Positions 3,650 through 63,506 of a DNA stretch of 64,000 nt are shown piece after piece. The DNA is from Tribonema minus. Lineage: Eukaryota; Sar; Xanthophyceae; Tribonematales; Tribonemataceae. The DNA lies in assembly GCA_017506865.1 (NCBI GenBank), contig JAFCMP010000024.1, forward strand, positions 1,302,001 through 1,366,000. The letters are read 5' to 3'. The position numbers and the translations under genes are program-made. Numbering within the stretch: the first letter of the stretch is position 1; each line of letters starts with the position of its first letter. A model generated the notes under the pieces. The model had not been told where the DNA came from, did not search any database, and was given only the letters and a program-made list of their open reading frames with translations.

Positions 3650-6600
3650 TCAGTGCGTGTAGAGGTCGCTGACGCTGCTGGTGACCATGGGCGCGGCGCC
3701 GCCCGGCGCGAGGTTCGTGAGGCTGTGCACGAACTGCTCCGGGATGGGCAGCTCCATGAGCTCGTCGTCGTCGCCGCCAGGGCGCGGGAAGGAGACGTTC
3801 ATCTCGCTCGACTTGGACGTGGTGAAGGTCGTCTCGAGCGCCGTCGCGCTCAGGTAGCACTGGAAGCCGTCCGTCTTGTCGATGGCAACGCTCGGCACGG
3901 CGACGCGCACTTGCACCTGCGGGCGGGGTTAGGGTCAGGGTTAGGGGAAGGGGGGGGGGGAGGGCTTGGAGGGGCAACTGCCAGGGGGGACTTACAATTG
4001 ACAAACTGAAAGAAAAAAGACCAGTAGACATGCGTGAAGTGAAGTGCTTGATGGGGGCAGATGCCATGTGAGCGCTTCGGTGCGATCATCCATGCGCGTT
4101 GAGACACTTCGGCACAAGGTATGATGTAGGGTGCGTAGCAAACGTTACATCGATGTTCCCCCCTTGCTCGCACGAAATAGTCAAAGGAAAGGCACTTGAA
4201 GTTCTGGCGGCCCGGCGTACCTTGATGCGCTGGCAGTTGACGGCCTCCACGCTGCTGATGCACTCGTCCACAAAGACCTGGGACTTGCGGCAGCCGTCGA
4301 TGCAGACGCTCTTGCACTTTCCCTTGATGTCCAGCGTCGCGTCCACGCACCCGTACACGTACACGCTGTGCTTGGTGTCGGTCACCTCCACCGTCACGAC
4401 GCCCGCGTCCTGCGAGTACAGGGGGGCGTACAGGGGGGGGTATATGAGGTGTACTGGTTGCAGAGTACGGGGGGGCGTACAGGGGGGCGTACAGGAGATG
4501 CACAGGTGTACGGGGGGGGGGGTTCAGGCAGGTATGCTGGCTGCGCACCTGGCCAGCGAGGCCCGCTGCCACGCGACTTCGAGGCGTACATTTCTGCCCG
4601 CAAAAACTGCCGGCACACCCAAGCACGCTTGCATGCTTCTCATAACAATTATCGGAGAGTCGCCACTGCGTGCTCTATGGCATCCTCACGCACATTCAAC
4701 AGGACATGCACACCCTGCCGTGGGTCTCCACAACCCGCGCCTGCACGAACGCGACCCTTGGGCGTCAACTGTTTGCTCTCCTTCACCTTTGAAGTACGAT
4801 GTTGAACTACATACACACCTTGCCCTGGTGCTCCACCACCCACTTGTTGCCCGCCTGCACGAACTCCAGCTTGGGGGTCCCCTGGGGCTTATTGGCAGCG
4901 GGCTTGGCAGCGGCGGCGGCGGGCGGTGCCTTGGGAGCGGCAAGCGCCGCGGCGGGAGTGTCGCTGCCCTTGTACTCTGCGCGCCACGTCTGCTGGTCCT
5001 TGGTCACCTGTTGAGCGTAGCGTCAAGGGTAGGGTTACGGTTAGAGGTAGGGTTGGTAGTGTTAAGGTCAGAGTTAGGGTTAGGGTCAGGGAGCGTCACG
5101 TCCTTGTACTCCGCGCGCCACGTCTGCTGGTCCCTGGTCACCTGTTGAAGTTGGCAGTCGCGCCACAAGTTTCAGTGGCAATGGTGACGTTCCACAGGCA
5201 ACGCAGTGAAGAACTTATGGAGCGCGCAGAACAACTTGCAGAGCGCAGGGTTGTCGCTGCTACAGTATGTGGGTATTTTCAATACCAACAAGTACTGGTG
5301 CGTCACCTCCCCTGGTACTGGGTCCGCTCGCTGGCGACGCTCAACTCTTGCTAGCAACGCTCCTAACTGTGACCACAATCTCCGTTGCCTTCTTTAGGCC
5401 CTTGGTGATCTCGAGGCCCTTGCTCAGCTCAAACGTGGATTCTCATGCTGCACCACGGAGGGGTAGGGTTAGGATGAGGATCTGCTTACTGGCAACGCTC
5501 AACTTTTGCCAGCAACGCTCCTAACTGTAACCGCCATATCCGTTGTGTTTCTTCTTGAGGGCCTTGGAAATTTCTAGGCCCTAGCTGAGCTCAAACACAG
5601 ATTCTCATGCTGCACCGAGATGACTTAGCGTAAAAGTGTGCTGGCAGCCCTCAGCGCTTGCTAGCCACCACGTGCATTACCTTCTTCAGGCCCTTGGTGA
5701 TCTCGAGGCCCTTGCTGAGCTCGCCGAATACGGCGCCGAGACCCGCGCCGCCCGCCGCCGCCGGCTTGGGCGCCGCCACCGGCAGCGGCGCGGCGGGCAG
5801 CAGCGGCGCCTTTGGTGGCGCTGCAGCAGCGGCTGCGGTTGCGGTGCATCGGTGAGAATGCGGGCGCAGAGGTTGGCACGAGTGTAGAATGAGAGGGCCG
5901 GTCTTGGGGTTTGAGGTTAGAGTTAGCCGAACTCTAACCCGGCAGCGGCGCGGCGGGCAGGGGCGGCAGCAGCGGATGCGGTGCGGCGGTGACCACGCGG
6001 ACGCAGAGGTTGGCGTGAGTGTAGCGTGGTAGGGTCGGGCTGAGGGTTTAGGGGTAGGGTCAGCCGAACTTTGACCCGGCAGCGGCGCGGCGGGCAGGGG
6101 CGGCGCCTTCGGTGGCGCCGGCGCTGCAGCAGCGGCTGCGGTTGCAGCGGTGAGAATGTAGGCGCAGAGGTTGGCATGAGTGTGGCATGGTAGGATCGGG
6201 CTTGGGGTTTAGGGTTAGGGTTAGCCGAACTCTAACCCGGCAGCGGCGCGGCGAACAGGGGCGGCGGGCAGGGGCGGCGCCTTCGGTGGCGCGCGGCGCT
6301 GCAGCACCAGTGGCTGCGGCGGTGGTGACAGGGGCGCACAGGTGAGCGCCAGCGTGGGCACAGGGGGGCAAATGAATCAACGACCTCTAGGTAACGAAGG
6401 GTTACGGTTACGGCGAGGGGTAGCCGAGCAGAGACTGAGGAGGCACCGCCATGATACGGTATACGGGTACCGATGTGCCTGCTCGAGTTGAGGGGCAGCA
6501 GTGGGAACCATGTTTGCGGTGCTGCGGCGTATTCACGTGGCGCGCGCAGTCATTGCTGTGGTGCCATCCGCGCGTTTCGCAGCGTGAGAGTCGCAGTTCC

Positions 6601-9600
6601 AAATGGGAGTTTGCATGCCTCTGCGGCATTCCATCTGTGTCTGAGTTGCGCACTGGAGCTGACAGGCGCATCGAAGTCTGGTGCAGCCGGCAACGCTGCT
6701 GTAAACTGATGCCCCCCCTTCCCTGTTTGAAGGTGCATTGGAGCGCCACAAGTGGTTCAAACCACGCTGCTGCCCCGTGCCCCGAGTGGACAACGTCTGA
6801 CCCAGTCTGCAACTGGCACGTCACGAAGCGCCCGCAGTCAGGAATGAGGTTCTGTTGACACATCGCAGCATCTGGTGCAGTGGCGGCGCCTGGGAGCGCG
6901 CCACGCATCGGCAGCCTGCTTGGCACACGCACATACATGTGCCACATGCGCTGCTTCATTGTATGTCTTGTCTTGCACGCGTGCTGGTGTACGGCAGACG
7001 CCTGGTGCGGCGGCGGCAGCATGGCGGCTACGTTGTGTGCCTGAAAACACAGCGGTGCTGTGGTCGTTGAATGGGCGCACGCAGACCGCTTGGGGCCCCA
7101 CCGCGGCGCGCACGCCGCTTCCGCGACCATCGCGTGCGCAGCGGTACGCAAGAGCGACGCCGCAGGCCCGCGCCACGCACGCCGCTGCCGCGACCACGCT
7201 GCCGCGCATGCGTAGCGGTTCACAAGAGCGACGTCGCCGGCCGTAGCATGCGTGCCGCTTTCGCAACCACGCTGCGGCGCATGCGTCGTGGTACGCAAGA
7301 GCGACGTCGGTAACACGGGGCGCAACGCATACCTGGCTGCGCGCAGTGGTACGCAAGCGCGACGTCGCCAACACAAGCCGCAGTGCGTACCTGGCGCAGC
7401 AGCGGCGTCGCCAGCGGTGTAGGCCGCCACCTCGCCCCCCCTGGCGTTCCACTCCAGGCCCGCCTTGTGGTGCTCCACGACGTACTCCTCCAGGCCCACC
7501 AGCAGCGCCTTGAAGGTGTCGCAGAACTCCACCTGAGGCGCGTGACGGTGACGCGCCCAAGCCATATGTAGTTCAATTTCAAGAAAACCTGAGGGTGTGT
7601 GACGTGCGCATGCACATGAAGTTCGATTTGAAGATGGTGGCGAGACACGAAATAAGGCGGTGTGAGATCGCGCGGGCCCCCTGTGCCGCGCACGCGCTCT
7701 ATCAGAGCACGGTGACAGCGGCGCACACGGAAGCAGGCGAGAGGGGATCGCCACACACCACGTGCGTGCGCGCGCATGGCAGCGGCGACACGCAAAGAAG
7801 GGGCGCTGCACCAGCCGCCACCTTCTGGCGCTCAACCGACGGGCACATCCGTGGTCCAATCATTCAGATGAAAGTTTCTACTTCAAGTACTTAAAGTATA
7901 TCCCTCGTCAGCGTCGGCGCCCCTTCCCCCGTGGCCATCATGAGCACGAGATGGCCACGAGCACGGTCCACCGCCAGCACGCTCCCCCCCCTTCCCTCAT
8001 AACAACAGGCAAGCGACATGCCGCCAGCAGGGTCCAAGAATGCGAACAAGAACAAGACGCTGCAAGCAGAACCCTCTAATATTCCAGCAGCTCAATCGTC
8101 AAATCGCCGCGCGGAGCGTCACCTGCTCGGGGGGCCCCGTCTTCTTGTACTGCACGCGGATCTTGTTGGCCCAGTAGTCGGAGCCGCCGACGGCGGAGAT
8201 GACAGTGTCCTTGGGGAGGCCCGCGGGCGGCGCAATGGCAACCCACATGAGGCACCCCAGCCCCTCGTTGACGGTCTTGGCGTGCATCTCCCACTCGTCG
8301 CGGGAGACGATGGCGCCGGCGGCCTGATGTACGTCACGCAGAGGGGTGCGTGCATGTGGCGTCGTGAGATGCGAGCGCAGGCGGCTTCTCTGCGCAATGA
8401 TGCGTGAGAGATGTTGAGGGGCGTAATGCATGTTGAGGTTGAGCGTCCGCAGTGACGTGCCGCCTCATGGGTTGTTGCTGATGGGTTTGAATGCGCGCCC
8501 ACGTCAGAACGCGAGTTGGACACAGCATGTACTAGCTCAACAAACAGTGCGGCGCATTGCAAGTGCACCAGAGCAGTCCAATTCGAGTGCACGCAGCATG
8601 CGTGTACTGCGTAATCCACCGCGGAACCCTCCGACCTGACCACCTCCGCGCGCCAACACACACGCCCCCGATGTCAAACTGCACTCTCCCCCCTCTCTCT
8701 GCGCGCTGCAGCATTGCTCAGACGCGCGCCACCACTGGCACCCACGCACCTTGACGAGCTCCTGCAGCGGCTTGAGCTTCGCCATGAGGTCCGCCTGCTG
8801 CGCGGGCTTCTTGCACTTGCTCGCCATCACCAGGAAGTCGCGCTGCGCCGCCCACGCCCGCTTCACAATGTCCCCCTGTCAGCATTGGCCGACAGCGATA
8901 GCGATGATAACAGTGATAGTCACCGACTATGAGTCAGTATGGCGAGGACAACTGCCGCTGCATGTGTGCTTTGATGTTGAGTGCGATTGTACCGCTCTGA
9001 TAGTGATGCATGCTGGTACGTCAGTGTGCACAGAATGATGGTCGACACCGGTACACGTGTCGTGCTCTGCTGGTGCGCACGATTCGTGCTAAGCACGCAA
9101 CGACAGGCAGCCTGCCACGTGAATCGCCATCACTGGCACGCGTGCTTTGCTGCCGTCACTACCTATGCTGCTGCGTTTTGATGGATGGCACTCATGGAGA
9201 GCGCAACCGTAGCGGAGCGCAACGCGAGGCCTGCTGGTGCAACAGTCGCCGGGCCAGGCGACGAACGTTCGACATAGCTACGCCTGCTTCTGATGCGTGT
9301 CTGCTGGGCATGGGTAGTCTGCCTGCCCCCTGTGACACCGAAAATATGATCTATCATTGATGACGCATTGTATCAACCCATGTGTACCTACTTACCCCTT
9401 TTGCCGCTCCGCCACCGAGCTTGGCGCTGGCAGCGACAAATGGCTCCAACTTCAACTGGCAGTAGCTGTCATAGGCCATAACATAGGGCGCGTCCTGCTC
9501 CGCGGCAGCACTCCTGGAGCCTGAGAAACGCAACGTATGGGACGGTGGCGAGCTCGCTTAAGTGCTATATGCACATGTGTACAAATGGCCTTTTCACAAT

Positions 9601-10213
9601 TTGAATTGCACCAAGAACAGAGCAACAGCAGCCGAAAAGCAGATACTAAGAACAAGGTTCGTGTGTACCTTGCACTGTGTACATGGCAAGTGTACGCAAT
9701 GCCCTCACAGCGGTACTGCACACAGCGGAGAATCTCTGCACATGATCATCACGTCTGCGATGGCGTCATCAGTGGAGTGGTTCAGATGTCCATATGACTG
9801 AGCGGTACAGCGCCAACACGCACGAGGTGGCGATGACAGACACAGAGCATGTTTGCACTGATCATGACCCACTAGGGGAGTTGAAAGTTCAACTGCCGCG
9901 TCCCCTGCAGAAGGTAGATAGGGAGTTCACTGCGCTGTTCTTCCGTAGGTCGGCTGCAGGTGTGTCAGGCTGATGGATACTTTACTGCACTTTGTGACCG
10001 CACAATGGCACAGGTGTGTGCGTTGATGCCAACAGAGCTTTCACAGTTGAAATGTATGCATGGCAGCAGCAGAAACCTGAGAGTGCAGGAAAGACCGACA
10101 CGTCGCGCACCTGCGGCGGCTCCAGCAGCAGGAGTGATGGACAGTGACTGCTCCACCACTGCCAGACGTGACTCGAAGTTATCGAGCAGCTGCTGAAGTT
10201 GACTGGTCGCCAT
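3650..10213 (-). CDS. CAP: Adenylyl cyclase-associated protein (CAP/Srv2), complete, 9 exons, 497 aa
   Basis: Actin-monomer-recycling protein of the cytoplasm that works with cofilin and G-actin. Exons in order: 10111-10213, 9396-9520, 8750-8875, 8123-8323, 7391-7532, 5681-5832, 4819-5007, 4221-4409, 3650-3916. All junctions keep frame and sum to 498 codons. Domains: N-terminal oligomerisation helix (MATSQLQQLLDNFESRL), helical-folded domain in exons 2-5 (APYVMAYDSYCQLKLEPFVA, LGCLMWVAIAPPAGLP), short Ala/Pro linker in exon 6, the ELSKGLEITKGLKK segment and, after a second linker, a C-terminal beta-helix CARP domain of about 150 aa (SVYVYGCVDATLDIKGKCKS; FPIPEQ-like LPIPEQF near the end). Human CAP1 has about the same length. 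The poly-Pro tract is much reduced. Six of eight introns are phase 0. The start ATG at 10213 matches the family N-terminus. The gene lies head-to-head with the 10804 gene. Introns 5, 6 and 7 contain exon-edge echoes. Confidence 0.96.
4710..4770 (-). repeat. CAP: Echo of CAP exon 7 3' end and donor
   Basis: This degenerate copy of the exon edge at about 4815-4872 (codons for KLEFVQAGNKWVVEHQGK plus the donor) lies about 105 bp downstream of the true donor in the sense of transcription. Confidence 0.75.
5094..5150 (-). repeat. CAP: Echo of CAP exon 7 acceptor and 5' end
   Basis: About 50 bp, close to 90% identical by eye to 4957-5012, including the CAACAG acceptor followed by codons for VTKDQQTWRAEYKG. 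It lies upstream of the true acceptor and is separated from it by TTAGGG-like intron sequence. Confidence 0.85.
5388..5597 (-). repeat. CAP: Two echoes of CAP exon 6 3' end and donor
   Basis: Copies at 5388-5437 and 5549-5597 reproduce the last codons of exon 6 (ELSKGLEITKGLKK) and the region of the donor at 5680. The nearer copy to exon 7 is better preserved. Both lie in the downstream intron. Confidence 0.85.
5938..6330 (-). repeat. CAP: Three to four echoes of the CAP exon 6 acceptor and linker start
   Basis: Units near 5938-6000, 6076-6150 and 6236-6330 repeat the GC-rich Ala/Pro linker start of exon 6. Each is joined by a spacer of GGGTTAGGGTTAG type, and several spacers contain an inverted GTTAGAGTTAG/CTAACTCTAAC-like hairpin. 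All lie upstream of the acceptor at 5832. Confidence 0.75.
7075..7375. repeat. Minisatellite of about 60-70 bp in CAP intron 5
   Basis: Roughly five imperfect units share the core GGTACGCAAGAGCGACG and CACGCCGCTTCCGCGACCA. The last unit runs into exon 5 at 7391, and a copy of the exon 5 donor context (CGCATACCTGG) appears near 7335, so the array seems to include the exon edge. Confidence 0.7.
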
Positions 10214-14182: not shown

Positions 14183-15045
14183 AGGGGGGCGGGGGGGGGC
14201 TGGCAAGCAGCTTCTCTCAAGGGAGCACACAGGGCTGTCTCCCTCCCATTCGTGCTGCATACGGGGGTTCATTGTACCAGTACAGAGTACACAACACCTG
14301 AGAGGTCATTCAGCATCCGTGTCACACAGGCAGCATACTAGAAATGTAGTGGAAGGCGAGCTGACCACGCTCACTTGTGACTGGCAGCAGATCAACCCAA
14401 CAGCACATGAGGGCAGCAATGCGCACACCTTTCGTATCATAATGGCATCCGTGGTTTAGACTCCCGACGCAGCATCTCGTTCTCTGCTGTCATAAGTTTG
14501 CACCTATGCATGCGTCTTGTTGTTTTTCTGTCGTTAGTTTGCACTTGTGCACGTGGGTGCAGGGAAGGGCCCGGGTGCACTGCAGTAAAGATACCGTCTT
14601 TATCACAACCCGCAGGGGGGCGGGGGGGGGCTGGCAAGCAGCTTCTCTCAAGGGAGCACACAGGGCTGTCTCCCTCCCATTCGTGCTGCATACGGGGGTT
14701 CATTGTACCAGTACAGAGTACACAACACCTGAGAGGTCATTCAGCATCCGAGTCACACAGGCAGCATACTAGAAATGTAGTGGAAGGCGAGCTGACCACG
14801 CTCACTTGTGACTGGCAGCAGATCAACCCAACAGCACATGAGTGCAGCAATGCGCACACCTTTCGTATCATAATGGCATCCGTGGTTTAGACTCCCGACG
14901 CAGCATCTCGTTCTCCTGCTGTCATAAGTTTGCACCTATGCATGCGTCTTGTTGTTTTTCTGTCGTTAGTTTGCACTTGTGCACGTGGGTGCAGGGAAGG
15001 GCCCGGGTGCACTGCAGTAAAGATACCGTCTTTATCACAACCCGC
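14183..15045. repeat. Nearly identical two-copy tandem repeat, about 431-bp period
   Basis: Copy 1 (about 14183-14613) and copy 2 (about 14615-15045) differ by only a few bases, including a 1-bp indel and variation in the G-run at the start of each unit. The array begins just after the 10804 gene stop and probably belongs to its 3' untranslated or downstream region. Open frames here repeat with the unit. Confidence 0.95.
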
Positions 15046-15721: not shown

Positions 15722-18700
15722 TCAGAACGGCGCGTACTTGGCGGGCTTGGACAGCACCGCCCACGCCGCGTCCGCCGCCGCGAGGTGCGCCCAGCCGAGC
15801 TCTCCGTACAGCGCCGCGCGCCGCGTCAGCGCCGCGTCACGCGCCAGCCCCGGCGGCGCCTTGGCCGACGCCGCCGCGCCGGCGACGCGGTTGAGGACCT
15901 TGAGCATGGAGCCGCGGCGCCGCGCGCGCGCGTGGTGCGCGAGCGCCACCGCTGCGTACTTGTCCTGCGCGACGTCGTCCCACTTGCGCAGCTCCGCGTA
16001 CGCCGCGTCGGCGGCCGCGTCCGCCGGCGACGGCGCCGCCACCGCCGCAGGTGCTGCCGCCGCCGCCGCCGCAGCAGCGCTGCCCGTCGCTTCCGCCGCC
16101 GCCGGCGCCGCTGCCTCGGGCGCCGCTGCTGCCGGCTCGTCGCTGGCGTCAGCGGCTGCGGCAGTGTCAGCGGCAGCGGCAGCGGCAGCGGCCTCGCCAT
16201 CGTCGGCGGCGGCAGCGGCAGCGGCAGAGGCAGGGGGCGCAGCAGCAGCTGCCGCGGCGTTGGGCGAGGCGGCGAGCGCTGCGTCCGCGAGAGCGCGCGC
16301 CTTGGCGGCCAGGGCCTCGCGCAATGCGTCGCGGCGCTTGCTCATGTCGGCGCTCAGCTTGTTGGCGGCGGGGTCGTCCGTGGGCAGGCGCGTGCCGTAG
16401 TGCTGCGCGAGCTCCGCCTGGTCCACCTGGCGCATGGCGAGGGGGGGTGGCAGGGGGGCGCACAGGGGGGGGGGTGGGGGGGGTCAGGTGGGTGCGTGAG
16501 TGTGCGCTGTCAAAGACGGCGGGAGGAGGGGGGGGTTGGTGGCCGCATCCGCTTGCGGATCTATCAGATGGAGAGCGCCCGCCTGGGACACACGGCCGCT
16601 GTCTGGGTTGTGCGAGCCCCTGCAGGTCGTGGCCGGCATGCAACGGTTCGCGGTGCGGCAACGACAGCAGGGCGTCACGCGCTCAAGCGCTGTCGAGCGC
16701 CCCGTGTCAACTATGATCTGGCCCAGGATACTGAGCTGCGATGCATCGGCGTGGTGCTGACACACGTAGCTGGGTGGCACAAACGTCAAAGTGCTTGAAA
16801 ACGACGGCACTTATATTCTTCTCCAGACCCAGGATGGTCACTGCAAGGGCCGACAGCCCTGAGGGTAGAATAGGCCAAGGTTTATTAGTGCACATATGTG
16901 CGTGCAAAAAGGGGGCATGAGCTCTGTCGCCAGGAGTGTGGCCTACACAGCGCCAAGACAATATGGCGTGCAGTGCGCCACTCGCCTTGGCTATGATCGC
17001 GTCGGCCGCCTTGACGACAGCCTCACATATTGATTGAAAGCCTGCGTATACAAAGGCTAACCCAAAAGCTAAGCTATTTGGATGTACAATATGTACCACC
17101 GCCACAATGTGCAGTCGACCGCTCGCCTTGGCGATGATCGCGCCGGCCGCTTGACAACATCCTCATACATGGTGCAATCTGGTCGACCTCCTGGTCATAC
17201 AAAGGCTCACCCTAACCCTAACATGTGCCACCGCCACTATGTGCAGTGGACCGCTTGCCTTGGCGATGATCGCGTCGGCCGGCTCGACGACACCCTCGCA
17301 CATGCGAAGGAAAATTCAATTCGAGCCTGCACCTGACAAGGTTGTGAGCATCTGTCCAAGGCCCACGACCGCCACTCCTGAACAGATGTCCTGCGGCCTC
17401 GGACAGCGACGAGACAACAAAAGTGCGCTCGACTGCTTGCCTTGGCGATGATCGCGTTGGCTGCCACGACGACCGCCTCATTCACGAGGCAGTGTGATTG
17501 CAAGCCTGCGTGTGCAAAGGCTTTGCATGTTCAAAATGCACTACTGCCATGCATCCTCAGATGCGCAGTCGGCTTGGGGGCTAACCCACACCTAACTTAA
17601 CCCTAAGCAACAACGTGCAGTCGCAGTTGACCACTTGCCTTGGCGATGATCGCGTCGGCAGCCTCGGCCACTGCGCCAAGCTGCTCCGCGCGCTTGGCAT
17701 CCGCGTCCACGTGCGCCAGGCGCGCCTGCAGCAGCGGCAGGTGGCCCTCGTACAGCGCGCACGCCCTCTTGTACAGGTCGTCGAAAGACGTCTTGCCGAC
17801 GAGCGCCAGCACCTTGGAGACCCAGAGGTCGCGCACGTCGCTCTCCACCTTCTCCTCCTGTCGTGCCGCAATCGATGCACACGGGAGCAGCGCATCGGTG
17901 GTCAGGCGCGTCGTGGTCATGTGGGCCGCCGTGTCCTGTCAGATGCTTCAAAAACGTCAGCAGTGGTGCGCAGTAGAAGTACTCTAACCTAAGCTTATCG
18001 TTGCCGGCGAGCGCCAGCACCTTGGACACCCAGAGGTCGCGCACGTCGCTCTCAACCTTCTCCTCCTGCCGCGTTGTGATCAGTGCACACTGGAGCGGCG
18101 CACGGGCGATTGGACAGCTGCTTGCCGTATCGCGTCAGACGCATGTATTTCCGCAGCGGTTTGCAGCAAAAGTGATCCTCCTGCCGTGCCGCGATCGATG
18201 CACACGGGAGGGGCGCACGGTGGTCAGATGCCTGCTCGCCGCATCGTGTCAGCTGCTGTCTCAACTGTAGCATATCGAAGTGCTTATTCCCTCGATAGAG
18301 TATTGCTGTGTCATTGCTCCTGCCGCTCCGCGATCAGTGCACACGGGAGCGGCGCACGGGCGGTCAGGCATGCCATGTCATGTGGGCCACTGTGTCCTGT
18401 CAGGTACTTGACAGAGTGTCAGCAGTAGTGGTGCGCAACGGAAGGACTTTGACCCGAAGCGCATCGTTGGCGGCGAGCGCAAGCGCCTTCATGTCCGGCA
18501 GCGACGTGAAAGAGCGCGTGGCAGGGCACTGGCTGACCTGACCGGCATCAGTGCAGACCCGCGCAGCAAGCAATGCACACGGGAGCGGCGCAGGGTGGGC
18601 AGGCGTGTCAGGGTCATGTGGCCCGCCGTGTCCTGTCGGGTACTTGTACTAGAAAGGGTGTCGTCGGTAGCACATGGAAGTGCTTGCTCCGTCCCATGAG

Positions 18701-47500: not shown

Positions 47501-50363
47501 TCAATCTCCAGAGTACACCTCTGTGTGACAACGACCAACTTACAAGTTGGTGAGCGCTGATGTCATGAGCTTACGTCATGATCGGCGCGGTCGTGCATGC
47601 GCGGCTCCGCGTAGCGGCGCCTCATTATGGCCGCTGCGAAACGACGAATGACGCGTCCGCACAGCCGCAGGGCGTCACATCGCCCCCCTAGGACGACAAG
47701 CAACCATTCCTAAACTTCAAGCGGCAGGCTGCGTGACGACTCCAACCCAAACCTTCCAGCAGCGCGCAAAGCTCAAGAGACCTCGTCCCACTGCGCCCAG
47801 ACATCGCCACAAAGCCCGGCAGGTACCAGTCGCGAAAAGCGCCGTGATGGCGCCCTGCGCTAGCTGCTGATGCGGATGTGCGGACGCCAAGCGCCAGCCC
47901 GCAATACACTTCCATCACAGCAGTACATACATGCATCCGCGCTTTGTGAGCGCTGCGCAGCGCCGCGCCGCCAGCAAACGCCCACCGCCGAGTGCCCGCC
48001 CGCTCGAGAGTCAACGAGAAACGACGATCGTGAGCGCCCCCCCCCCCCCCTGTGGCCCTGAATGCTTGAGAATCAAAGAGACACATTGCGAACGACCCCC
48101 CTCCCCCTCCCCGTGACCCTGACCCTGCCGGTCAGACCCCCCCGCGTACCTGCATGGGGGTCCCGTCCAGCGTGCGCAGGTGCAGACTCGCGACGGCCTC
48201 CTGCGCGTCCAGGTAGCGCGCGTACGTGACGATTGCCTTGCCCTCGCTGCGCCCGGTGCTGTCGTACTGCATCTCCACGTCATTCACCTACGGGGCGCGC
48301 GTGCGCGCACAGATGCGAGTAGAGCGGTTGCAGAATACATGAACACTGCATCCCCACGTCGTTCGCCTGGCGCGCGCGCGCAAATGCAGATGCGAGTGAA
48401 GCATTCGCATGGTATGTGAAAGCCGCATCTCCACGTCGTTCACCTGGCGCGCGCGCACGCCAATACGAGTAGAGCGGTCATGCATACGTGCACGAGTTAC
48501 ACAACACGAATTACATGAGAGCTCTGCTGGCGCGGACGACGGCGCTGTGCGACGTGCAGAGGTCGACGAGGCGCGTGACTGCGCCAATTGCCGTTGAAGT
48601 TGAAGTGCAAGAGAGGCGCACCCGCCCCCGCGTGCTCGCACTGCTGCGTCCTGAGCGTTTGCGGCAGGCTAGGCGCAGCTGTTGCCGGCAACCTACATAG
48701 TCAACATGTTGCATGTGGCGGTCACAGGCTTCACATGATGGGGTCGCCATGAAGTGTACTTGATAGATATTGCATTGTAATCTTCGTGCCGCAACATCCT
48801 AGACTGTTGGTCAGCACGTCATTCCAATCTTCAAGACACGGCTCAGTGTCACCAGCAAGGCGATGGCTGCAGCCTCAAGAGGGCGGTCGCCAATTGAATA
48901 TGACCATAGCAGCATTCGCTTTCCTTGTCAGATCGGCCAATGGTGTGCATCTACTGCATGCCCCAAAGCAGTGGCGATTTCGACGACAATTGAAAGTGAA
49001 CCAAAAGGTCACTACATGGCATATGATAATATTATGATTTGTGTTTGACTGCAAGACAAATGCAACGTGGCACTTCGCGCGTGCAATGTACTGTAGTTTG
49101 ATTCAGTGACTTCATGGTCACTACATGGCATATGACTTGTGTTTGACTGCTATTATAATATGTAACGAGGCATTCCGAGCATGGCTGTATATTGCAGTTT
49201 GCTTCAGTTTGATGTACTTTAGTTCAGTTGACTTCACTATATAGCATATAACTTGTGTTTGGTTGCTAAAATAAAGTTCAATATGAGGCATTCCAAGCGT
49301 GGCTGTGTATTGTAGTTTGCTTCAGTTTGTTGTAGTTCAATTCAGTTGACTTCATACCTGTCCAACTGTTGCCGCCACCTCCTTGATGTCCTCCAGATCC
49401 ACATCATGGTTCAGGTTGCTGAAGCCCACCTGCGTCCCGAATACCTTCTTGGTGTCGCGCTGCGTGCCACTGAGAGGGGGAAGTGAATGCGCTAAGCACA
49501 TAAGGTGTTGGCGCTGACGGCAAGTGCGCGCGCAAGCAAGCTGCTGCGCATGATGCATTCAACAACAGGGGACGTGGGTAATTCCATCTGACCACGTGTA
49601 TATATATACACACTGGGGATTGATCTGGCCTTGCATGGCGCGGTTGAATGGTAGGTAATTTCATCTCTGACTTCATACACACACTGAACTTGGCTAAAGT
49701 GTCCTCGCCCAGGCCAACGTGGGACAAAGCACATGAGCGATCAAACATCAACACAATAAACGCCTGCACAAGCACACGCAACGGTGCACCAGACTCACAG
49801 TCGAGAAAGAATGGAGGACTTTGGGGCACCGCCGTTGCGCGCCGCCGAGTACGGAGCAGCTGCTTGCCGCCGCTCCTGCCTGCCGCCAGCTCTCCTCGCA
49901 GGGCCTGCGCCGCCGCCGCCTCCGCCGCCAGAGCCAGCCTGCAGATATACCAGGGTGCACTGGAACAATCATGACGCTGCTGCAACCAAGCAGCCTTTCC
50001 CGCCCTGCCAAGCGAAGATGGGTGCGCTGCGAGGCAGGTCTCCGCGCTAGTGGTCGCGCCCGGTGAAGCCTTGCACCAAGAAACCGGCTAGAGGATAGGA
50101 TCCAATTCACGCACCGGATGGAGGTCGTGCTGCCACTTGCCCACCATGTCGCTGCGACCTGTCCGTCGATCAACATTATCGTTGCCTCTGGGCGGCCTTT
50201 GACGCTGCGGCGGCTTGCTGACGACGCCTCCTCCTTGCTTCCTGGGTACAGCCGGTTGCTTCGCTTTCGGTTTGGGCTTGGTCTTACTGGCAGCAGCAGC
50301 CTGCTGCTTCTTGGCCTTCAGAATGTCGTCCAAGGACATCGACAGAAGGTCGGTCGTGTCCAT
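44595..50363 (-). CDS. ALYREF: ALY/REF-type mRNA export adaptor (THO complex subunit 4), 5 exons, about 300 aa
   Basis: Nuclear RNA-binding adaptor that links spliced mRNA and UAP56 to the export receptor. Exons: 50115-50363, 49358-49459, 48150-48287, 46946-47052, 44595(or 44609)-44907. Exon 1 carries the UAP56-binding motif LLSMSLDDILKAKK and the family block KWQHDL. Exons 2 and 3 form one RRM (VGFSNLNHDVDLEDIKEVAA; GKAIVTYARYLDAQEAVASL). Exon 5 has KGRGFSGHKYDALVRDDEEE and a Gly-rich tract. The main frame ends at 44595, but the overlapping frame ends DRMDEDMDDYFKKRA at 44609, the typical ALY C-terminal motif, so a one-base difference in a G-run probably separates the two. The fourth intron is phase 2, the rest phase 0. 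Head-to-head with the TPR gene. Confidence 0.92.
44993..45079 (-). repeat. ALYREF: Recent echo of ALY/REF exon 5 acceptor and 5' end
   Basis: 87 bp with only a few mismatches to 44828-44913, including the acceptor and codons for MKGRGFSGHKYDALV.DDEEEYEAA. The upstream copy has a better acceptor (CTGCAG) than the true one (CCGCAG). The two copies are separated and followed by long G-runs (44923-44949, 45100-45122). Confidence 0.95.
45740..46260. repeat. Tandem repeat of about 160 bp, over three copies, in ALY/REF intron 4
   Basis: Units share CACCTGCCGCCRGTGCCAGCC and TGCCGCCGTTGCTCGCCTTG, starting near 45818, 45970 and 46155, each followed by AARCTCGCCTAYGCGCGC-like sequence. Open frames on both strands repeat with the unit and are not taken as genes. 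Confidence 0.9.
46764..46838. repeat. Two-copy repeat containing ACTTGAAGTACGAG, 49-bp period
   Basis: AGCAGCGTCACACTTGAAGT occurs at 46764 and 46813 within ALY/REF intron 4. Confidence 0.9.
48345..48455 (-). repeat. ALYREF: Two echoes of ALY/REF exon 3 acceptor and 5' end
   Basis: CTGCATCCCCACGTCGTTCG near 48348 and CGCATCTCCACGTCGTTCAC near 48427 copy the exon 3 start (codons for VNDVEMQ at 48266-48287). The flanking GCGCGCGYGCGC and ATGCGAGT.GAGCG spacers repeat too. Confidence 0.9.
49008..49352 (-). repeat. ALYREF: Three-copy intronic repeat of about 105-120 bp starting exactly at the ALY/REF exon 2 donor
   Basis: Units share CTACATGGCATATGA / ACTTGTGTTTG..TGCTA and TTTGCTTCAGTTTG.TGTA. 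The first unit begins within a few bases of the donor at 49357, and unit borders (GTTGACTTCA) coincide with the donor-proximal sequence. No exon part is included. Confidence 0.85.
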
Positions 50364-50780: not shown

Positions 50781-53749
50781 ATGAACTCGGCGGCGAGGCT
50801 CGCTCTGAGGAGAGTGAGGGGGCACTGCTGTAAGCTGCCAGCATGCAACACCACCACCACCAGCAGCCGCAGGAGCACCAGCAGGCTAGCTACGACATGG
50901 GCATGCGCCGATGCACAGCTGGAAGCGCTCTCAGAAGTGAAAGACGCAGAAGTCATGGACGCTCGAGGGCAGCAGCATCTAGCCATACCGCTGCTGCAAA
51001 GGGCTGTAAATATTTGCGAGACGTCAATGGGCAAGGAGGCGCTGCTGACCCAGGCGGCGAATAGGCGGTTAGGGCTTACACTATATCGGGCAGGGCGGCT
51101 AGCTGAAGCTGAGGTGAGTGCAGTGTTTGCCATGTTCAAGTTGCTTCATGCTTCTGAATGAGGTGCCAGCATCACCAGGTTTGATCGTGCAGCACAACCT
51201 CTGCTTCAAATGTGTGTGTTTTTGCTGGCTGAACAAAGGTGCTGGTGCTAATGCACAGTTAGCTTGTCGCCAGCTGCATGCCTTGCAGCACCACTGCGAT
51301 GAGCATCTTCAACAGTGCACAACGCCTGAAACACCGACCGCGCAGCCACCTGTTGAACCGGTGTATCGCGACGTCATTCTGCATTGCACACTGTGCTCGC
51401 TCCTCCCCACGCGCGCCAACACTCACGGACACACATTGCGCAGCGCCGCATCAAACACACATTTGGCACCGCTCACCGCAAAGCCACCCGCGCTTGACGC
51501 CCCGACTCGCGCGCGGGGCACCGCACATTCCTCATGTCACCACCCGGCGCCACTTTGCAAAAACCACCGGCAAACGCGTGCCCCTTCGGCGAACGCCCAA
51601 ACGTGACAGTTCAAAACCTTCACGGCGCCGCTTTAGAAACACAACCGGCAAATCAGTAACCCATCAGCGAAAGCGCAAACGTGACAGTCTTCGAAACTTT
51701 GATGTACGGAATTGCAGGCGGCGGTGCGCGCCGCCGTCGGCGCGGGTGATGGCGCGGCGCAGCTCGCCGAGTACGTGGGCGCCGTCCTCCTCGTCGCGCG
51801 CGCGCAGCTCTTCCAGGGCAAGCTCGCCGCCGCCGCGGCCACGTGCGCGGACGCCGTGCGCGCGTGCGAAGACGGTGTCAGCGGCGCGACGCCCGACACG
51901 GCGGCGCTCGGCAACGCGCTGCGCAGCCTCGGCGTCGTGCAGCTGCTCCGCGGCGACGGCGACGCCGCGGAGACGAGCCTGCTGCGCGCGGCGCGCCTCA
52001 GCGACGGCGCCGCCGACCAGGCCAAGGCGAGGATTGCGCGTGCGGTGTGCGGGTGCTGCTGCGTGTGTGCTCGTTGCGGTCCGTTCTGACTGCGTTGCTG
52101 CTCAGGCCAGGGGCCGGCCGTGGCGCGGGTGCTGGTGGTCTGCGTCCGCTGTCCAGATTGCTGACAGCGCCGGCGAGCAACAGGTGCATTGTCAACGCGG
52201 GCTGCTGTGAGCTGCAGCAGGCTTGCCGCCAGCCTGTGCGATTTACGGGGCAAGGAGTGCTGTCGTCTCAGGCATGGCTGTGCGCGTATTGCGCCCATTA
52301 GAACGCGCGCCGGTGCGGCGGGAGGCGGTGCGTTGTACGCGGTGCCTACTGCAATTGCGTTTGGTCAGTCTGCCGCTGCGGAGCCTGGGTGCGGTGCGGG
52401 TGCTGATGGCACAGATCGCAACAGTATTTGACGTGTAATGTGCTACTGTCTCTGCATTCATCCCCGCCATGCCTGATCAGATTTCGTGCGTGTGTGCCAC
52501 GACCGCCGCTGCCGCCGCAGGCGCTATCATCCCTCGCTGCGTATAGCATGTCTATCGAGACGGCGGAGGGGCACCGAGACGCACTGGAGTACTGGCAGGA
52601 GGCGGTGTCAGTGCTCACCGCGGCAGACGCACAAGCAGCAGCGTCGGCGTGCGCAAAAACTAAGGTACTGCCGTCTGCAGCGGCTTATGGTGTGTTGCTA
52701 TTCGTGCGGCTTGCACTTGGCGCCTTGCGGGAGCGAGGGGCGCAACTTCAACACCACACCATATGGCGCATGCGCTACATGTTGTGACTGCCTAGTGCAT
52801 CATTGTGCATCAATGTGCATCCCCTTTGCAAATTGATGTCCTGCTTCAGATTGACGGCTCGATTCAGATTGACGGCTCGACACTTAGTGTGGTCGACGCA
52901 TCAGCTGCAGCTGTGTTGCTGCCGCTGCACAGCGGGACTTGCCAGCACACGGTCGCCGTCACGCTCTCCCACCTTGCAGTGGCCATTTGAACACGGCGGC
53001 TCGATGATCAGCTCACTCGAGCTGCCGTTTCAAATGCGCTCTAGCGAATGGATGCTTGCGTCCGAGCCATGCGCGTCCGCCAGGCGCTGCAGCGCTGCGT
53101 CCCATACGCGCGTCACCACCACTTTCACTCACCTCACACACGCTACGCAAAGTGCCCCCCCCCACACCCCCCAATGAGACCAATGCAGGCCGTCGACTTG
53201 CCGTCGTGAACGCGAGCTCGCTCATCTGCACCCCGAAGTGGCTGCCATCACGCCGCACTCGCCGCTTGCATCCGCCGCCGTTCCCACCTCGCGCAGGCCA
53301 CTGTGCAGTGCTCGCTCCCGTTCGATATAACCAATTCAAGCCGTGGCTTGCGTTCGCGCACTCGAACACGCTCACTCGCACCCCAAAGCGGCTGCCCTCA
53401 CGCCAAAATACGCCTCACCCGCCCCATGCCCCGTCGCCACCGCCACCGCCGCAGCGCGAGCTCCAGGAGACGCACGCCATCACCCTCACCAACCTCGCCG
53501 AGGCGGCGCTGACCGGCGCGCCGGGGCCCTACGAAACCGCCGGCGCCGGCGGCAAGGCCGACACGGAGCGCCCCTCGGCGCACCTGCGCGAGGCGCTCAA
53601 GCTCAGCGAGCAGTCCATGGGGCACAACGACCCGTACCTGGGGTGGGTGCTCGCGCAGCTGGCGCGCTGCTGCCACCTGGCGGGCTCCGCGGTGACGGCA
53701 GAGGGGCTCTTCAGGTGCGTTTGTTGTGTGTTGGTGTGTGCGTGTGCAT

Positions 53750-53780
<31 letters not shown>

Positions 53781-56028
53781 GCGTGTGTGTATGTGTGTGT
53801 GTGTGTGTGTGTATGTGGGTGCTCGTGCAGCTCGCGCGCTGCTGCCACATGGCGGGCTCCACGCGGTGACAGCGGAGGGGCTGTTCAGGTGCGCGCGTGT
53901 GTGGGGGTGTGTGTGTGTGTGGCTTGTGTGTGTGTGAGTGTGTGTGTGGCACATCGGTGTGTGTGTGTGTGTGTGTGTGTGCGTGCGCGTAGGTGGGTTT
54001 GTGTGGGTGCGTGTGTGTGTGATGAGGCACATGGTGTGTGTGTGTGTGGCACGTGTGCATGTAAGTGGCTGCAGTCGGCGCGCTGAGGGGTCGCTGCGGC
54101 AGCGGACGCAGGCAAATGATGCCATGGACGGCGTTTTCTGGAACACTTGGTCCAGTGTGCAAAAGCCCTGTAGACCACAGGCCCTGTTGCTTGCGCAAGC
54201 GCTGAGCGCGCATTGCACGATGTGATGACTGGTTCCAATCATCCACTCAACTGAAACTGGATCAACCGGTTGTCAATCTGAACGTATGCAGTGTGGATTG
54301 TACGACTACGTGAGTCCTAAGCATGCTGTCATGTGTGACCTCCGCTTCGCCGCGCATGACTGGGAATCTTTCAATGACTTCCTCTCACGTACTCCAGCCT
54401 TGTTGGTGTTATGCAGTCCACAACTGCGGCTTTGCTGATCGCCACACTCTTGAAACCTTTTGTAAGAAGTCGCCAGCAGCAGCCCAAGAAGCTGAAGTTG
54501 ATGTTACCTGCTCTTGCGACGTCAAGGACGCGTCAGCAGCTGTGCTTACATGTCACACAGTGCTCAAACACTAGAAATGACATGCAACACTGTGGTGGTT
54601 ATTGGAGTATATCGGAGTATGCATCAATCCAAAAACGTCAACAGCACGGCAGTCAGCGCAGCGGCAGCCGCGAGCAGCAGTGCTCACATGCAGCTGCCGC
54701 TGCGCCCCCGCTGAATCTGTTCAGCGCGGCGTTGCCCAGACCAATCGCTGATTCCCCTCCCCCCTCCCGGGGGGGGGGGGGTCTCAGCAGCGGCCAGACA
54801 ACCGCTCACGGACTCCACAGATGCCGCACTCGCCCCCCACGGCGCGCGTCTACTATATCACCTGTGAACATACCGTGCACTATGGGCTGCTGCGTGTGCA
54901 CTCGCCTCCCACGGCGCGCGTCTACTATATCACCTGTGAACATCACCGCGACCGCGCACGGCACTATGGGCTGCATTTCGTCTCAGTTGTCGGTATTGCC
55001 CCCCCCCCCCCCCCTCCAATGACGTCCTGGACATGACAGAGACAGTGCTCAAGCGTTGACCCAAGCCTCGCATGTGGTCACAACGGCCCAAGCGTTGACC
55101 CAAGCCTCGCATGTGGTCACAACGGCCCCGTTTTCATTGCTGTGCAGATCCGCAATGGAGAAAATGGACCCCGAGGACGTCCGGGGCAAGCAGGCGCTAG
55201 CGATGCATCCGTCGCCAGCAAATATATTTCTGGTAAGCTGGCTTAAAGGCACACCGTCACTAGTAGTGCGTTCTTGCCATGACCTGCAGTGGAGTTGATA
55301 TATTGTTGAAACATGATGTGGGTTGTGCCATAGCGTTGGCTTGAGCGTATCTAGAGACTGAGCCTCATCAGAGCATCAATCAACTGGATGCTGCATATCA
55401 CAGTTGGACTGCACAGGTATCCACAACCGGCACTGCGTTTAACATATAAGCGGACAAAGTGGCGGAAGCATGTAATGGAAGGTCTGGCGATGAGTGCGCA
55501 TCCATGCTGCTGCTTCGTAGGGTTCAACCGCATGCGACCCCACTCTATGAGTGAGTTATGACCGCAACAAGAGTCATAGTGCCATTGCTGTGTTCTGCTT
55601 CCTTGGCACAGCGCGTGCGCGCGAGCCAGGAGCAGCGCGTCTCATGTGCTTCACGCTATGTACATCTCAGACACGAGTCCAAAGATCTTGCTGTCGTGTG
55701 CGCTGCACGACTTCAGCCGTTGCTGCCTTGCGCTGCACGACTTCAGCCGTTGTTGCCGCAATCCCACGACCATGCAGATTCAGTAAGCAGACCCGCAGTT
55801 ATGGCTACATGGTCACGCCTCACACACCGCTCCGCTCTCTTGCTGCTGTTCATCTTGTGAGCACAGCTGCAGGGCACTCTGTCCATGTACTCGCAGCTGC
55901 TGCTCCAGTGGGAGAAGCGCGAGGCCGTAGGGCGCAAGATGCAGCAACGAGCACAGGACTTGGAGGCAGGCCTGCCATTGAAGCTGCCGCCGAGAGTGTC
56001 CCTCCCCATGCTACACTTGTGCCGCTAA
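50781..56028 (+). CDS. Probable mitochondrial TPR protein, 6 exons, 434 aa
   Basis: Exons: 50781-51113, 51718-52044, 52521-52664, 53455-53714, 55148-55232, 55873-56028; phases agree throughout. The N-terminus (MNSAARLALRRVRGHC and a Ser/Thr/Arg-rich stretch to about residue 42) is a typical mitochondrial presequence, which is why I start at 50781. About five TPR-like helical pairs follow: LAIPLLQRAVNICETSMG, GKLAAAAATCADAVRACEDG, LGVVQLLRGDGDAAETSLL, AEGHRDALEYWQEAVSVL, HAITLTNLAEAAL and LAQLARCCHLAGSAVTAEGLF. The C-terminus ends in an amphipathic helix, MYSQLLLQWEKREAVGRKMQ. The donor of exon 2 (GTGTGC) is weak. A further TPR-like piece, HTVAVTLSHLAVAI near 52951-52990, has no fitting phase and may be a relic or missed exon. 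Partners are unknown. Confidence 0.75.
51535..51705 (+). repeat. Repeat of about 75 bp upstream of the TPR exon 2 acceptor
   Basis: CGGCAAA...AAACGTGACAGT units occur near 51570-51612 and 51646-51690, including CGCCRCTTT..AAA upstream parts. They lead toward the acceptor at 51717 but contain no exon sequence. Confidence 0.65.
53740..54065. repeat. GT-rich microsatellite with a donor echo inside
   Basis: Long interrupted (GT)n and a G-run near 53764-53780 fill the intron after the TPR exon 4. Within it, 53816-53889 copies the exon 4 end (LAQLARCC codons through the donor, parent 53640-53720) with two 1-bp changes that break the frame. The His/Thr-rich minus-strand frames are artefacts of the GT repeat. 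Confidence 0.93.
55050..55130 (+). repeat. Two-copy 38-bp repeat before the TPR exon 5 acceptor
   Basis: AAGCGTTGACCCAAGCCTCG and the following bases through ACAACGGCCC are repeated in direct tandem just upstream of the pyrimidine tract for the acceptor at 55147. Confidence 0.95.
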
Positions 56029-56430: not shown

Positions 56431-56494
56431 CAAGTTCAACTCCCCCCAAACCAAGTTGAACTCTGAAAGAATAAACACAGATTAATTAGAGATC

Positions 56495-58320: not shown

Positions 58321-58403
58321 CTGCTGTGCCGACATGCAATGTTTGCGCATGTAGGGACAGCCTTGCAGGCGCGATGCCAGATAGCAGCATCTTATTGAAG
58401 TAG

Positions 58404-58441
58404 AAATGGATCAACAGATTGTAGAGCTCTAGGTGACAAGG
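58404..58441 (+). repeat. Repeat of 57046-57083
   Basis: GATCAACAGATTGTAGAGCT with flanks closely matches 57052 onward, 1.36 kb away in the same orientation. It is a short dispersed repeat of unknown nature. Confidence 0.75.
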
Positions 58442-59781: not shown

Positions 59782-60008
59782 GCAAGGCTGTAAGCACAAA
59801 GGATGCATTGTGCTGGCAGGTCACTGACAGCTGGTCACTGATTGTGCCAATTGCACCCACCCTCATGCCCGCAGCATCGCTGGCGTGGACTGGCAGGGTT
59901 CTGAGCTGTGCAGCACAGTGGGCAAGCGACATCTTCGGAGTCTCAGACACTCGCTTGACATCAGCAACAGCTGGGCGGGAACATCAAGAGTCCCGGAAAG
60001 GCGTTTGA
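59782..60008 (+). CDS. Candidate terminal exon of an unknown gene
   Basis: After TTCTTGCGCAG at 59781 a frame of 75 codons (KAVSTKDALCWQVTDSW..., hydrophobic SLIVPIAPTLMP) ends at TGA 60006-60008. It needs one base from a previous exon, which the exons at 56747 and 57791 could supply in phase. No family recognised. Confidence 0.22.
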
Positions 60009-60256
60009 GCTGGTGGCGCACAAGCCATGTCAAAAGGGCTGGGGTTAGAGTTAGGGCTAGGGATAGCTAGACACGACATGCAAAGCGTCGGCGACGCACG
60101 CATCACCGTGGGCGACGAGGACAGCAGCTGCACAATATTTCATGTTGAAAAGGGATCATTATTCAGTGCAGCACGAAGCTCCTTGGAAGTTGTGTGCACA
60201 GCCCAGGTGGTTGAGTGACACCAACGTGTACACGTATGGAGGACGTAGGGGAGGAC

Positions 60257-60396
60257 CCCGAGATGCCATTTGGCGGCGGCGGCGTTTGAGTGGTTGTCGT
60301 TGCGACACTTTCAGACTGTCATACGACATGTAGATTCCTTACAGCTAGATGCCAATCATCTGGGCTTTTTCGCGCCCTGAGCGAGAATTAATAAAA
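60257..60396 (+). repeat. Dispersed repeat copy 2
   Basis: This is the partner of 23786-23930. It includes TTTGGCGGCGGCGGCGTTTG, TTTCAGACTGTCATACGACA and the TGGGCTTTTTCGCGCC...AATAAAA end. The last bases (60381-60401) are shared as an exact 21-mer with the minus strand at 1836-1856. Confidence 0.85.
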
Positions 60397-60401
60397 AGTA
60401 C

Positions 60402-62659: not shown

Positions 62660-63506
62660 CTACATCCACTTCCACCAAGTCTTCTGCTTTTTAGTGGCAG
62701 CGCCGCTGTCATCGGCGGCCTCCTGCAGTTGTGAGCGCAATCTGTCCAGTATCCGGTTGGTTTCTCTCCGCGCATGTTGGCTGCATTCAATGAAACACAG
62801 GCAGATGGAGCTGGTGTTAAAACCATTGGTGCTGTATGTCAAGCAGCGCCAGAGCAACGCAGGTAGCAGACATCTAGACAACATGCAGCGTGAATTTGTG
62901 ATGGCTGGGGAAGATGAGACGGTTTACATTGCAAGCGCAATGTCATGCATGTCATGCGATAGTGAAACGATGGCTGCTGCCCAATGCTGCCTGTCTGTTT
63001 ATCTGCGCTGCCGCCCTGAACGCGTCTGGGACAATCTGCTCACAATCGACGGCACTGACGTCGGGTCTGCCAGGTCCAGGTACTTCTTCACAAGAGTATG
63101 CATGTGCGAGCTATTGTGCACTCTATATGAACTCATCTTCGTGACTCAGCAGCATGCTCTTCGTGACTCAGCAGCATGCACGCACAACAGGTCACATCAT
63201 AGCCCTGCAACATTATGTACACTTATGGTTGCCGTAGCAGATGCACTGCTGACCTTGCGGGTACCTCCATGTGCACTTCATATGAACTCATCACCGTGAC
63301 TCAGCAGAATTCACGCGCAACGGGTCGCATCATAGCCCTGCAACACTCTGTACGTTAATGGTCGCCATAGCATATGCACCGCTGACCTTGCGGGTACGTC
63401 CATGTCCTCCAGCGCCAGCACCTTGAGGAACAGCTTGGGGTGCGCAAAGACGCTGAGCTTGGCCTGACCCGTGTCCACCGTGTCGCGCCAGCACTCGCCG
63501 TGCACC
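62660..63506 (-). CDS. 3' end of an unrecognised gene, last two exons
   Basis: Exon 63387-63506 encodes VHGECWRDTVDTGQAKLSVF and AHPKLFLKVLALEDMDVPA and ends in phase 2 at an AAG/GTCAGC donor. Exon 62660-62780 starts in the matching phase and gives QHARRETNRILDRLRSQL, EAADDSGAATKKQKTWWKWM and a stop. The C-terminus is a charged helix plus a basic, Trp-rich tail. The upstream exon must end with two bases of a codon and was not found before the window edge. A small piece coding YLDLADPTSVPSI near 63050-63090 is protein-like but does not fit the phase. I do not recognise the family. Confidence 0.5.
63190..63275 (-). repeat. Echo of the 63387 exon donor edge
   Basis: CACTGCTGACCTTGCGGGTA and the upstream ATCATAGCCCTGCAACA copy 63325-63410, spanning the donor and the last 20 bp of the exon. 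Period about 137 bp; it lies downstream of the true donor. Confidence 0.85.

What the first reader, a model, noticed from the sequence alone, without database searches (positions are those of the whole stretch)
3650..63506. Exon-edge echoes: introns built from graded copies of their own exon-intron junctions
At more than 20 exon edges in CAP, TPPII, the 35680 gene, ALY/REF, the TPR gene and the 62660 gene, the flanking intron holds one to six tandem copies of that same edge, splice site included. The polarity is strict: copies of exon 3' end plus donor are always downstream, copies of acceptor plus exon start always upstream. Copies often decay with distance, and the spacers repeat with them. 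This is what repeated tandem duplication across a splice junction would leave, with splicing restored at the exon-proximal or best copy. Intron gain by tandem duplication and introner elements are known ideas, but a genome region where nearly every intron grows this way, from both ends, is not something I know to be described.
Basis: partly seen in the sequence, partly recalled or inferred. Interest (0 to 1): 0.92.

Follow-up and report, generated by a model that had tools for sequence, protein, structure and literature searches.

The report
Exon-edge copies stacked inside introns
In the yellow-green alga Tribonema minus, about one exon edge in five of the genes examined has one to six partial copies of itself, splice site included, in the neighbouring intron, and the copied exon piece often stays far more similar to the exon than the DNA around it, which simple duplication followed by decay does not explain.

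Summary
In 10 modelled genes (76 introns, 152 edges), 33 edges carry 68 echo copies, 17 donor and 16 acceptor edges, in 27 introns. Over 324 kb of two contigs, arrays with 60-250 nt units touch coding exons in 69 of 118 cases (19.7 expected); with at least 3 pairs, 41 of 45 (7.1 expected); shorter or longer units show no excess. Detection with exons masked still finds most such arrays tied to exons (53 of 95). So exon edges are favoured places.

Three points fail: strict polarity follows from where introns lie; decay with distance is not significant (12 down, 7 up, 1 tie); "nearly every intron" is about one third.

New point: a copy's exon-derived block is decoupled from its spacer. At 68 edges their similarities do not correlate (rho 0.015; neutral simulation about 0.7), and 95-100% identical blocks lose similarity soon after the splice site. 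I favour exon-anchored arrays renewed by exchange with the selected exon; selection on the copies, or re-copying of short edges, is not excluded.

The parts
15725..34875 (-). TPPII gene, 19 exons, 18 introns (mean 833 nt); 7 donor and 5 acceptor edges echoed by blastn, 7 and 6 by the gapped search
   Evidence: Spliced alignment of P0001, translation identical; intron mean; echoes
31818..32303 (-). TPPII exon 4 donor array: two downstream copies of exon 3' end plus GT
29125..29718 (-). TPPII exon 8 acceptor array: three upstream copies
27998..28289 (-). TPPII exon 9 acceptor edge with one upstream copy
27419..27814 (-). TPPII exon 9 donor array: two downstream copies, exon part 88-90% identical, spacer weakly alignable
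25314..25422 (-). TPPII exon 12 acceptor edge, 19 nt of exon in a 55-nt unit, one copy
24274..24812 (-). TPPII exon 13 acceptor array, two copies by the gapped search
23986..24204 (-). TPPII exon 13 donor edge with one downstream copy
23071..23389 (-). TPPII exon 14 donor edge: 117 nt of exon plus donor copied at 87% together with part of the spacer
22029..22737 (-). TPPII exon 15 acceptor array: 37 nt of exon start plus AG in three upstream copies (81, 86, 92%, rising with distance)
20581..20933 (-). TPPII exon 16 donor array, unit 104 nt, three copies
19223..19782 (-). TPPII exon 17 donor array, three copies
17793..18879 (-). TPPII exon 18 acceptor array, copies near 18001, 18176, 18317, 18560 (three by the gapped search); the deposited exon start may be too early
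16968..17674 (-). TPPII exon 18 donor array, four copies; the deposited GT donor is doubtful, a GC donor upstream is likely (by eye); left out of the splice-site statistics
3653..10213 (-). CAP gene (CAP_N and CAP_C domains)
   Evidence: Pfam; own model
5779..6327 (-). CAP acceptor array upstream of exon 5681-5832, three copies
5320..5722 (-). CAP donor array of the same exon, two copies
4954..5148 (-). CAP acceptor echo of exon 4819-5007, 90% identical
45744..46251 (-). ALY/REF donor array of exon 46156-46251, two copies, exon part 92%
48266..48478 (-). ALY/REF acceptor array of exon 48150-48287, two copies
44826..45159 (-). ALY/REF: deposited exon 7 (44963-45073) begins with an 82-nt copy of the start of exon 8 (3 differences), separated by a 55-nt intron; probably an echo annotated as an exon
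53643..53893 (+). TPR gene donor array of exon 53455-53714
40507..40751 (+). Predicted exon 40657-40751: its first 49 nt plus CGCGCAG copied 142 nt upstream with 49 of 49 exon bases identical, while the spacer scores 0.18 per nt (shuffle -0.1)
   Evidence: gene-finder exon only

Best explanation
Exon-anchored tandem arrays. Step 1 (inferred): a tandem duplication of about 100-200 nt spans a splice junction; it is tolerated because splicing keeps using the exon-proximal site, so the extra copy becomes intron. Step 2 (shown as an outcome): copies number up to six, and echoed introns are longer. Step 3 (inferred): the exon copy is held constant by selection and so stays a good partner for unequal exchange or gene conversion; the exon-like block of the intron copies, with the few selected bases of the splice site, is renewed from it again and again, while spacers, free in both partners, drift until only a trace of likeness is left. 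A duplication wholly inside an intron has no constant partner, diverges and falls silent, so multi-copy arrays of this unit size remain almost only at exon edges.
For: With exons masked, 53 of 95 arrays (60-250 nt) belong to exon-touching arrays, 22 of 29 with two or more pairs, and in modelled genes 21 of 32 and 9 of 9 (no expected value computed there). Exon blocks decoupled from spacers: Spearman -0.19 (n=30) against about 0.7 in simulation, 0.015 over 68 edges. At 21 edges with exon identity >=95% the ungapped match runs a median 12 nt past the junction against 31-54 simulated (P 4e-7 to 0.002). Spacers are still related: 52 of 60 steps beat their shuffle by more than 8 points, so arrays began as tandem units. 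Copies of one array differ in identity to the exon more than chance gives (P 0.033). No strong sign of coding use: exon-copy mismatch by codon position 0.118, 0.111, 0.177; 23 of 64 copies frameshifted.
Against: No conversion event was seen directly; no allele or sister species was at hand. Average exon and spacer divergence at the first step (identity 0.858 and 0.767) is close to what plain neutral duplication predicts; it is the lack of correlation that breaks that model. Simulations use one mutation rate everywhere; fast-slipping spacers (poly-C, TTAGGG-like) could explain part. For exon identity below 0.88 the match past the junction fits the neutral simulation; for 0.88-0.95 the difference is P 0.006, 0.03 or 0.30 by indel rate. 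Repeat coverage does not peak at edges: flat in TPPII introns, 0.10-0.11 at 1-30 nt from exons and 0.15-0.19 at 100-200 nt. In exact models the more diverged arrays (best segment <0.85) show no edge excess: 5 of 20, 5.0 expected. Splice dinucleotides are intact in 55 of 62 copies against 133 of 167 matched controls (P 0.12), the direction that selection would also give. Copy-copy mismatches differ by codon position (0.219, 0.161, 0.238, P 0.0006). A mutational hotspot in exons or at junctions is not excluded. The 324-kb counts rest partly on a home-made gene finder that returned 16 of 28 known exons exactly, although trained on them.
Confidence: 0.4

Rival explanations
1. Plain neutral tandem duplication everywhere; edges stand out only because the exon copy is frozen by selection and so the pair stays recognisable twice as long.
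For: Background tandem duplications exist (21 young arrays by TRF). Average divergences fit a neutral simulation. Two-copy arrays (60-250 nt) at edges are no more frequent than a twofold retention allows (23 of 64, expected 18.8, P 0.16). Repeat coverage does not peak at edges.
Confidence: 0.2
2. The intron copies are kept by selection because they do something in splicing, for example as decoy or reserve splice sites or enhancer-bearing pieces.
For: Preserved blocks stop close to the splice consensus (examples); GT/AG intact in 55 of 62; donor copies keep strong contexts such as CAGGTGCGC; only 6 of 64 copies carry an in-frame stop.
Against: Intactness is not significantly above matched controls (P 0.12) and 23 of 64 copies are frameshifted; copy number differs freely between edges, and 119 of 152 edges have no detected copy.
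Confidence: 0.15
3. Short exon-edge pieces (about 40-100 nt with the splice site) are copied again and again into the nearby intron by a templated mechanism, independent of the spacer.
For: Young blocks end abruptly at both sides, e.g. predicted exon at C533:494050, about 95 nt at 97% with only GCAG contiguous upstream; identities of copies in one array are heterogeneous (P 0.033).
Against: Spacers are usually related too (52 of 60 steps), which separate insertions would not give; copies are almost only in direct orientation (88 to 1), whereas end-joining with templated insertion gives both (recalled).
Confidence: 0.15
4. Tandem duplication of this size is a hotspot at exons or exon-intron junctions; the ones inside exons are lost and only edge-spanning ones survive.
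For: Edge arrays have their own unit range (10-90%: about 95-205 nt, median 130 and 144 on the two contigs) while non-edge arrays are broader and mostly single-pair.
Against: Does not by itself explain the exon/spacer decoupling.
Confidence: 0.1

Closest known systems
Tandem duplication across an intron-exon boundary in the potato RdRp gene (PMC4974935, abstract and outline read)
   Same: A duplication crossing an acceptor edge, with splicing signals inherited from the parent edge; the ALY/REF exon 7/8 arrangement here looks alike as annotated
   Different: There a single recent event that made a new intron; here 33 of 152 edges, both kinds of edge, up to six copies, existing introns lengthened, exon blocks preserved apart from spacers
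[quoted passage not shown] PMC2891723, passages read)
   Same: Tandem duplication resolved by splice-site choice
   Different: Model makes a new intron equal to the unit; here the unit (median 130-144 nt) is a fraction of a long intron and repeats one edge with its intron part
Introners / introner-like elements (recalled; one listing seen)
   Same: Large-scale change of introns in one genome
   Different: Dispersed near-identical introns; here repeats are local (88 of 117 same-strand pairs in the window lie within 3 kb)
Tandem exon duplication and mutually exclusive exons (recalled)
   Same: Exon copies in introns
   Different: Copies here are partial, with one splice site and no steady reading frame

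Membership tests
[quoted passage not shown]
   Repeated units with related spacers; real edge joined in transcript-derived P0122 at 5 of 5 echoed edges
[quoted passage not shown]
   Edge-array units mostly 95-205 nt in echoed introns of median 965 nt; likeness of intron start to the next exon was not tested separately
Boundary-crossing duplication (potato RdRp type) | Unit spans an exon-intron boundary | tested here: met
   33 of 152 edges
Boundary-crossing duplication (potato RdRp type) | A new intron results | tested here: inconclusive
   Only ALY/REF exon 7/8, and only as annotated
Introner elements | Similar introns dispersed through the genome | tested here: inconclusive
   64-kb window only: 29 of 117 same-strand pairs are not local; whole-genome search not answered
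Ordinary tandem duplication / minisatellite background | Position independent of exon edges | tested here: not met
   Units 60-250 nt: 69 of 118 against 19.7; units <60 nt (3 of 27, 1.5 expected) and >250 nt (3 of 22, 6.0 expected) do fit background
Tandem exon duplication | Whole exon with both splice sites copied | tested here: not met
   In exact models 32 of 60 intron-containing arrays take in 8-143 nt of one exon at one edge; one ALY/REF pair takes in parts of two exons
Gene conversion | Tracts shared with the donor, polarised by an outgroup | not testable with these tools
   No second strain or sister species genome at hand

The most novel reading that the evidence does not exclude
Exon edges seed self-renewing arrays in their introns: the exon, kept constant by selection, acts as a lasting template that keeps re-supplying exon-plus-splice-site blocks to the intron, so conserved coding sequence drives intron growth from both ends and fills introns with good but unused splice sites.
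Probability: 0.35. Interest if true: 0.86.

Novelty: new variant of a known kind. Interest (0 to 1): 0.74.

Why it matters
If right, selected exons, usually seen as passive borders, drive the growth of their own introns. It also gives a natural test of splice-site choice: the same donor with about 50 nt of the same exon before it, repeated about 100-1000 nt downstream, is passed over in the gene models, and in the one transcript-supported gene checked. In practice, echoes can mislead gene prediction (ALY/REF exon 7).

Tried and rejected
Polarity as evidence: rejected, it is implied by intron position. Decay with distance: tested, not significant. Copies as cassette exons: 23 of 64 frameshifted; of the 10 strand-labelled pairs displayed, only 2 have an AG or GT at the far end of the block (read by eye; an eleventh pair had no strand label). 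Assembly artefact: thought unlikely because exon-to-copy identity is 0.68-0.96 at the first step and spacers differ more; no reads were available. Inverted copies: almost none. First repeat searches by blastn missed short-period tandem copies; replaced by an own finder. Home-made gene finder: 21 of 28 known exons exact at first, 16 of 28 after iteration, so exact models are reported apart. A young-duplication test has too few arrays with 60-250 nt units to speak about births at edges. Of 8 WD40 bait loci, the own finder (no shuffle control) shows repeats across an end of the open frame around the exon in L004 (C346, both ends), L006 and L008 (both inside the C533 stretch already used); L005 has none, the other four show repeats elsewhere or inside the frame; splice sites were not modelled there. 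Papers: intron-gain searches and Tribonema/Ectocarpus searches listed nothing whose title or opening abstract describes edge echoes; the library lacks most subscription journals. Ectocarpus TE paper: passages read.
Full report
WHAT THE WINDOW IS. The window is G000:C24:1302001-1366000, in an assembly of 158,181,000 bases and 554 contigs. A TPPII query joined from window exons hits the deposited Tribonema minus protein P0001, whose contig length, 1,569,067, equals that of C24. Spliced alignment of P0001 gives 19 exons whose translation is identical to it. So the genome is that of T. minus, a xanthophyte alga related to brown algae (relationship recalled).

WHAT FAILS. No wrong-way copies were found, but that polarity is a matter of definition. 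Identity falls with distance in 12 arrays, rises in 7 and ties in 1. In 49 of 76 introns no echo was detected.

IS IT MORE THAN RANDOM DUPLICATION. The fair null is tandem duplication anywhere, with those breaking coding sequence removed; edge-touching arrays are then expected from geometry, and a frozen exon copy at most doubles the time they stay visible. In exact models, for units of 60 nt or more, 31 of 49 arrays touch exons against 16.4 expected (P 1e-5), or 24.2 with the doubling (P 0.03); among the more diverged arrays there is no excess (5 of 20, 5.0 expected). Over 324 kb with predicted exons added, units of 60-250 nt give 69 of 118 against 19.7 (33.5 with doubling, P 5e-12), and arrays with at least 3 pairs 41 of 45 against 7.1; single-pair arrays are within the doubled expectation (23 of 64 against 18.8), and units below 60 or above 250 nt show no excess. 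To remove the frozen-copy bias I masked exons and found arrays from noncoding DNA alone: of 95 with units of 60-250 nt, 53 belong to exon-touching arrays; with two or more pairs 22 of 29; in modelled genes 21 of 32 and 9 of 9 (a looser cut gave 55 of 102, and 12 of 13 in modelled genes; no expected values were computed there). Against a simple hotspot, repeat coverage does not peak at the edge itself: it is flat through TPPII introns and, on both contigs, highest 100-200 nt from exons. Young tandem arrays by TRF (at least 93% matches) touch no exon in 20 of 20 noncoding cases, one more being wholly coding; 17 of the 21 have units below 50 nt and 3 near 330 nt, so they represent the background rather than edge births.

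THE DECOUPLING. In 30 edge-to-first-copy comparisons the exon part is 85.8% identical with 3.3 gaps per 100, the intron part 76.7% with 12.1 (shuffle 71.4% and 16.9). Averages fit neutral duplication with a frozen exon. But neutral decay ties both parts to one clock and predicts a correlation near 0.7; observed is -0.19. Over 68 edges, 27 of them exactly modelled, it is 0.015; the 19 edges with exon identity of at least 96% have spacer score 0.14 per nt, shuffle -0.06, where the simulation gives about 0.6 for exon identity of at least 92.5%. From the junction outward, matches at 21 edges with at least 95% exon identity run a median of 12 nt into the intron, simulation 31-54; below 88% identity observation and simulation agree. 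Eleven alignments are shown. Between two intron copies, too, the exon-derived part is better kept (82.5% and 4.5 gaps) than the spacer (77.8% and 10.1), while the simulation gives nearly equal identities. Selection of the best short segments inflates exon identity somewhat; blocks of 57-95 nt at 96-98% remain.

HOW IT MAY WORK. Spacers are related in 52 of 60 steps, so arrays began as tandem units. The exon part must then have been renewed or conserved. Coding constraint is not evident: mismatches of copies against the exon are 0.118, 0.111 and 0.177 by codon position, the third-position excess being what the exon's own silent changes would add; 41 of 64 copies are free of frameshifts and 6 have an in-frame stop. 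Copy-copy mismatches differ by position (0.219, 0.161, 0.238, P 0.0006), without the low first and second positions of a coding exon. Splice dinucleotides are intact in 55 of 62 copies against 133 of 167 matched control dinucleotides (P 0.12). Renewal by exchange with the selected exon explains the persistence of multi-copy arrays at edges, the decoupling, uneven identities within one array (P 0.033), and the stop near the splice consensus, which selection also freezes in the real edge. This is inference; no conversion event was seen.

RNA. P0122 comes from a transcriptome record, aligns at 99% and joins the exon-proximal sites at its five echoed edges. In ALY/REF the deposited model uses an echo as exon 7: 82 nt of the start of exon 8 with 3 differences, then 29 nt of other sequence and a 55-nt intron. 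That is either a prediction error or a case like the potato gene of PMC4974935 (abstract and outline read).

PLACE AMONG KNOWN THINGS. Intron gain by tandem duplication is established (passages of PMC3443670 and PMC2891723), and one boundary-crossing case is described. I found no account of edge-anchored arrays across a genome in the searches named in Tried and rejected. The pattern is a new variant of a known kind. The mechanism is open.

LIMITS. Exons outside the ten genes are predicted by a gene finder of modest accuracy. No other eukaryotic genome was compared.

Noticed in passing
window with its 60-kb left flank, and C533:300001-500000: Telomere-like GGGTTAGGG is hugely over-represented: 27 on both strands in 124 kb and 109 in 200 kb against about 0.3 and 0.6 expected; TTAGGG hits lie in edge arrays at about twice their share (51 of 277 against 9-10% of noncoding bases).
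   Followed up: partly
window 44963-45073: Deposited ALY/REF exon 7 is an 82-nt near-copy of the start of exon 8 plus 29 nt; possible annotation error or exonised echo.
   Followed up: partly
window 17615-17935: Deposited TPPII exon 18 looks extended at both ends; by eye a GC donor after IIAK and a later acceptor fit homologues better.
   Followed up: no
window 860-1502 and C533:339416-340058: Both hold a 330-nt unit, 1.9 copies, 95-96% alike; possibly one dispersed element, not compared with each other.
   Followed up: no
window 14183-15045: Tandem duplication of about 431 nt, 99.3% identical, between the end of TPPII and the CAP gene.
   Followed up: no
C24:1280600-1289000 (window -21400 to -13000), minus strand: Predicted exons reading as triosephosphate isomerase followed by GAPDH on one strand, probably a TPI-GAPDH fusion gene (names by eye and recall).
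   Followed up: no
C533:373900-427000, plus strand: Very long series of predicted exons with SPRY-like and, at the end, HECT-like peptides, perhaps one giant ubiquitin ligase gene (names by eye).
   Followed up: no
C533:302858 and C533:317636, minus strand: Two nearly identical predicted WD40 exons 15 kb apart, a recent local gene duplication; could date echoes between paralogues.
   Followed up: no
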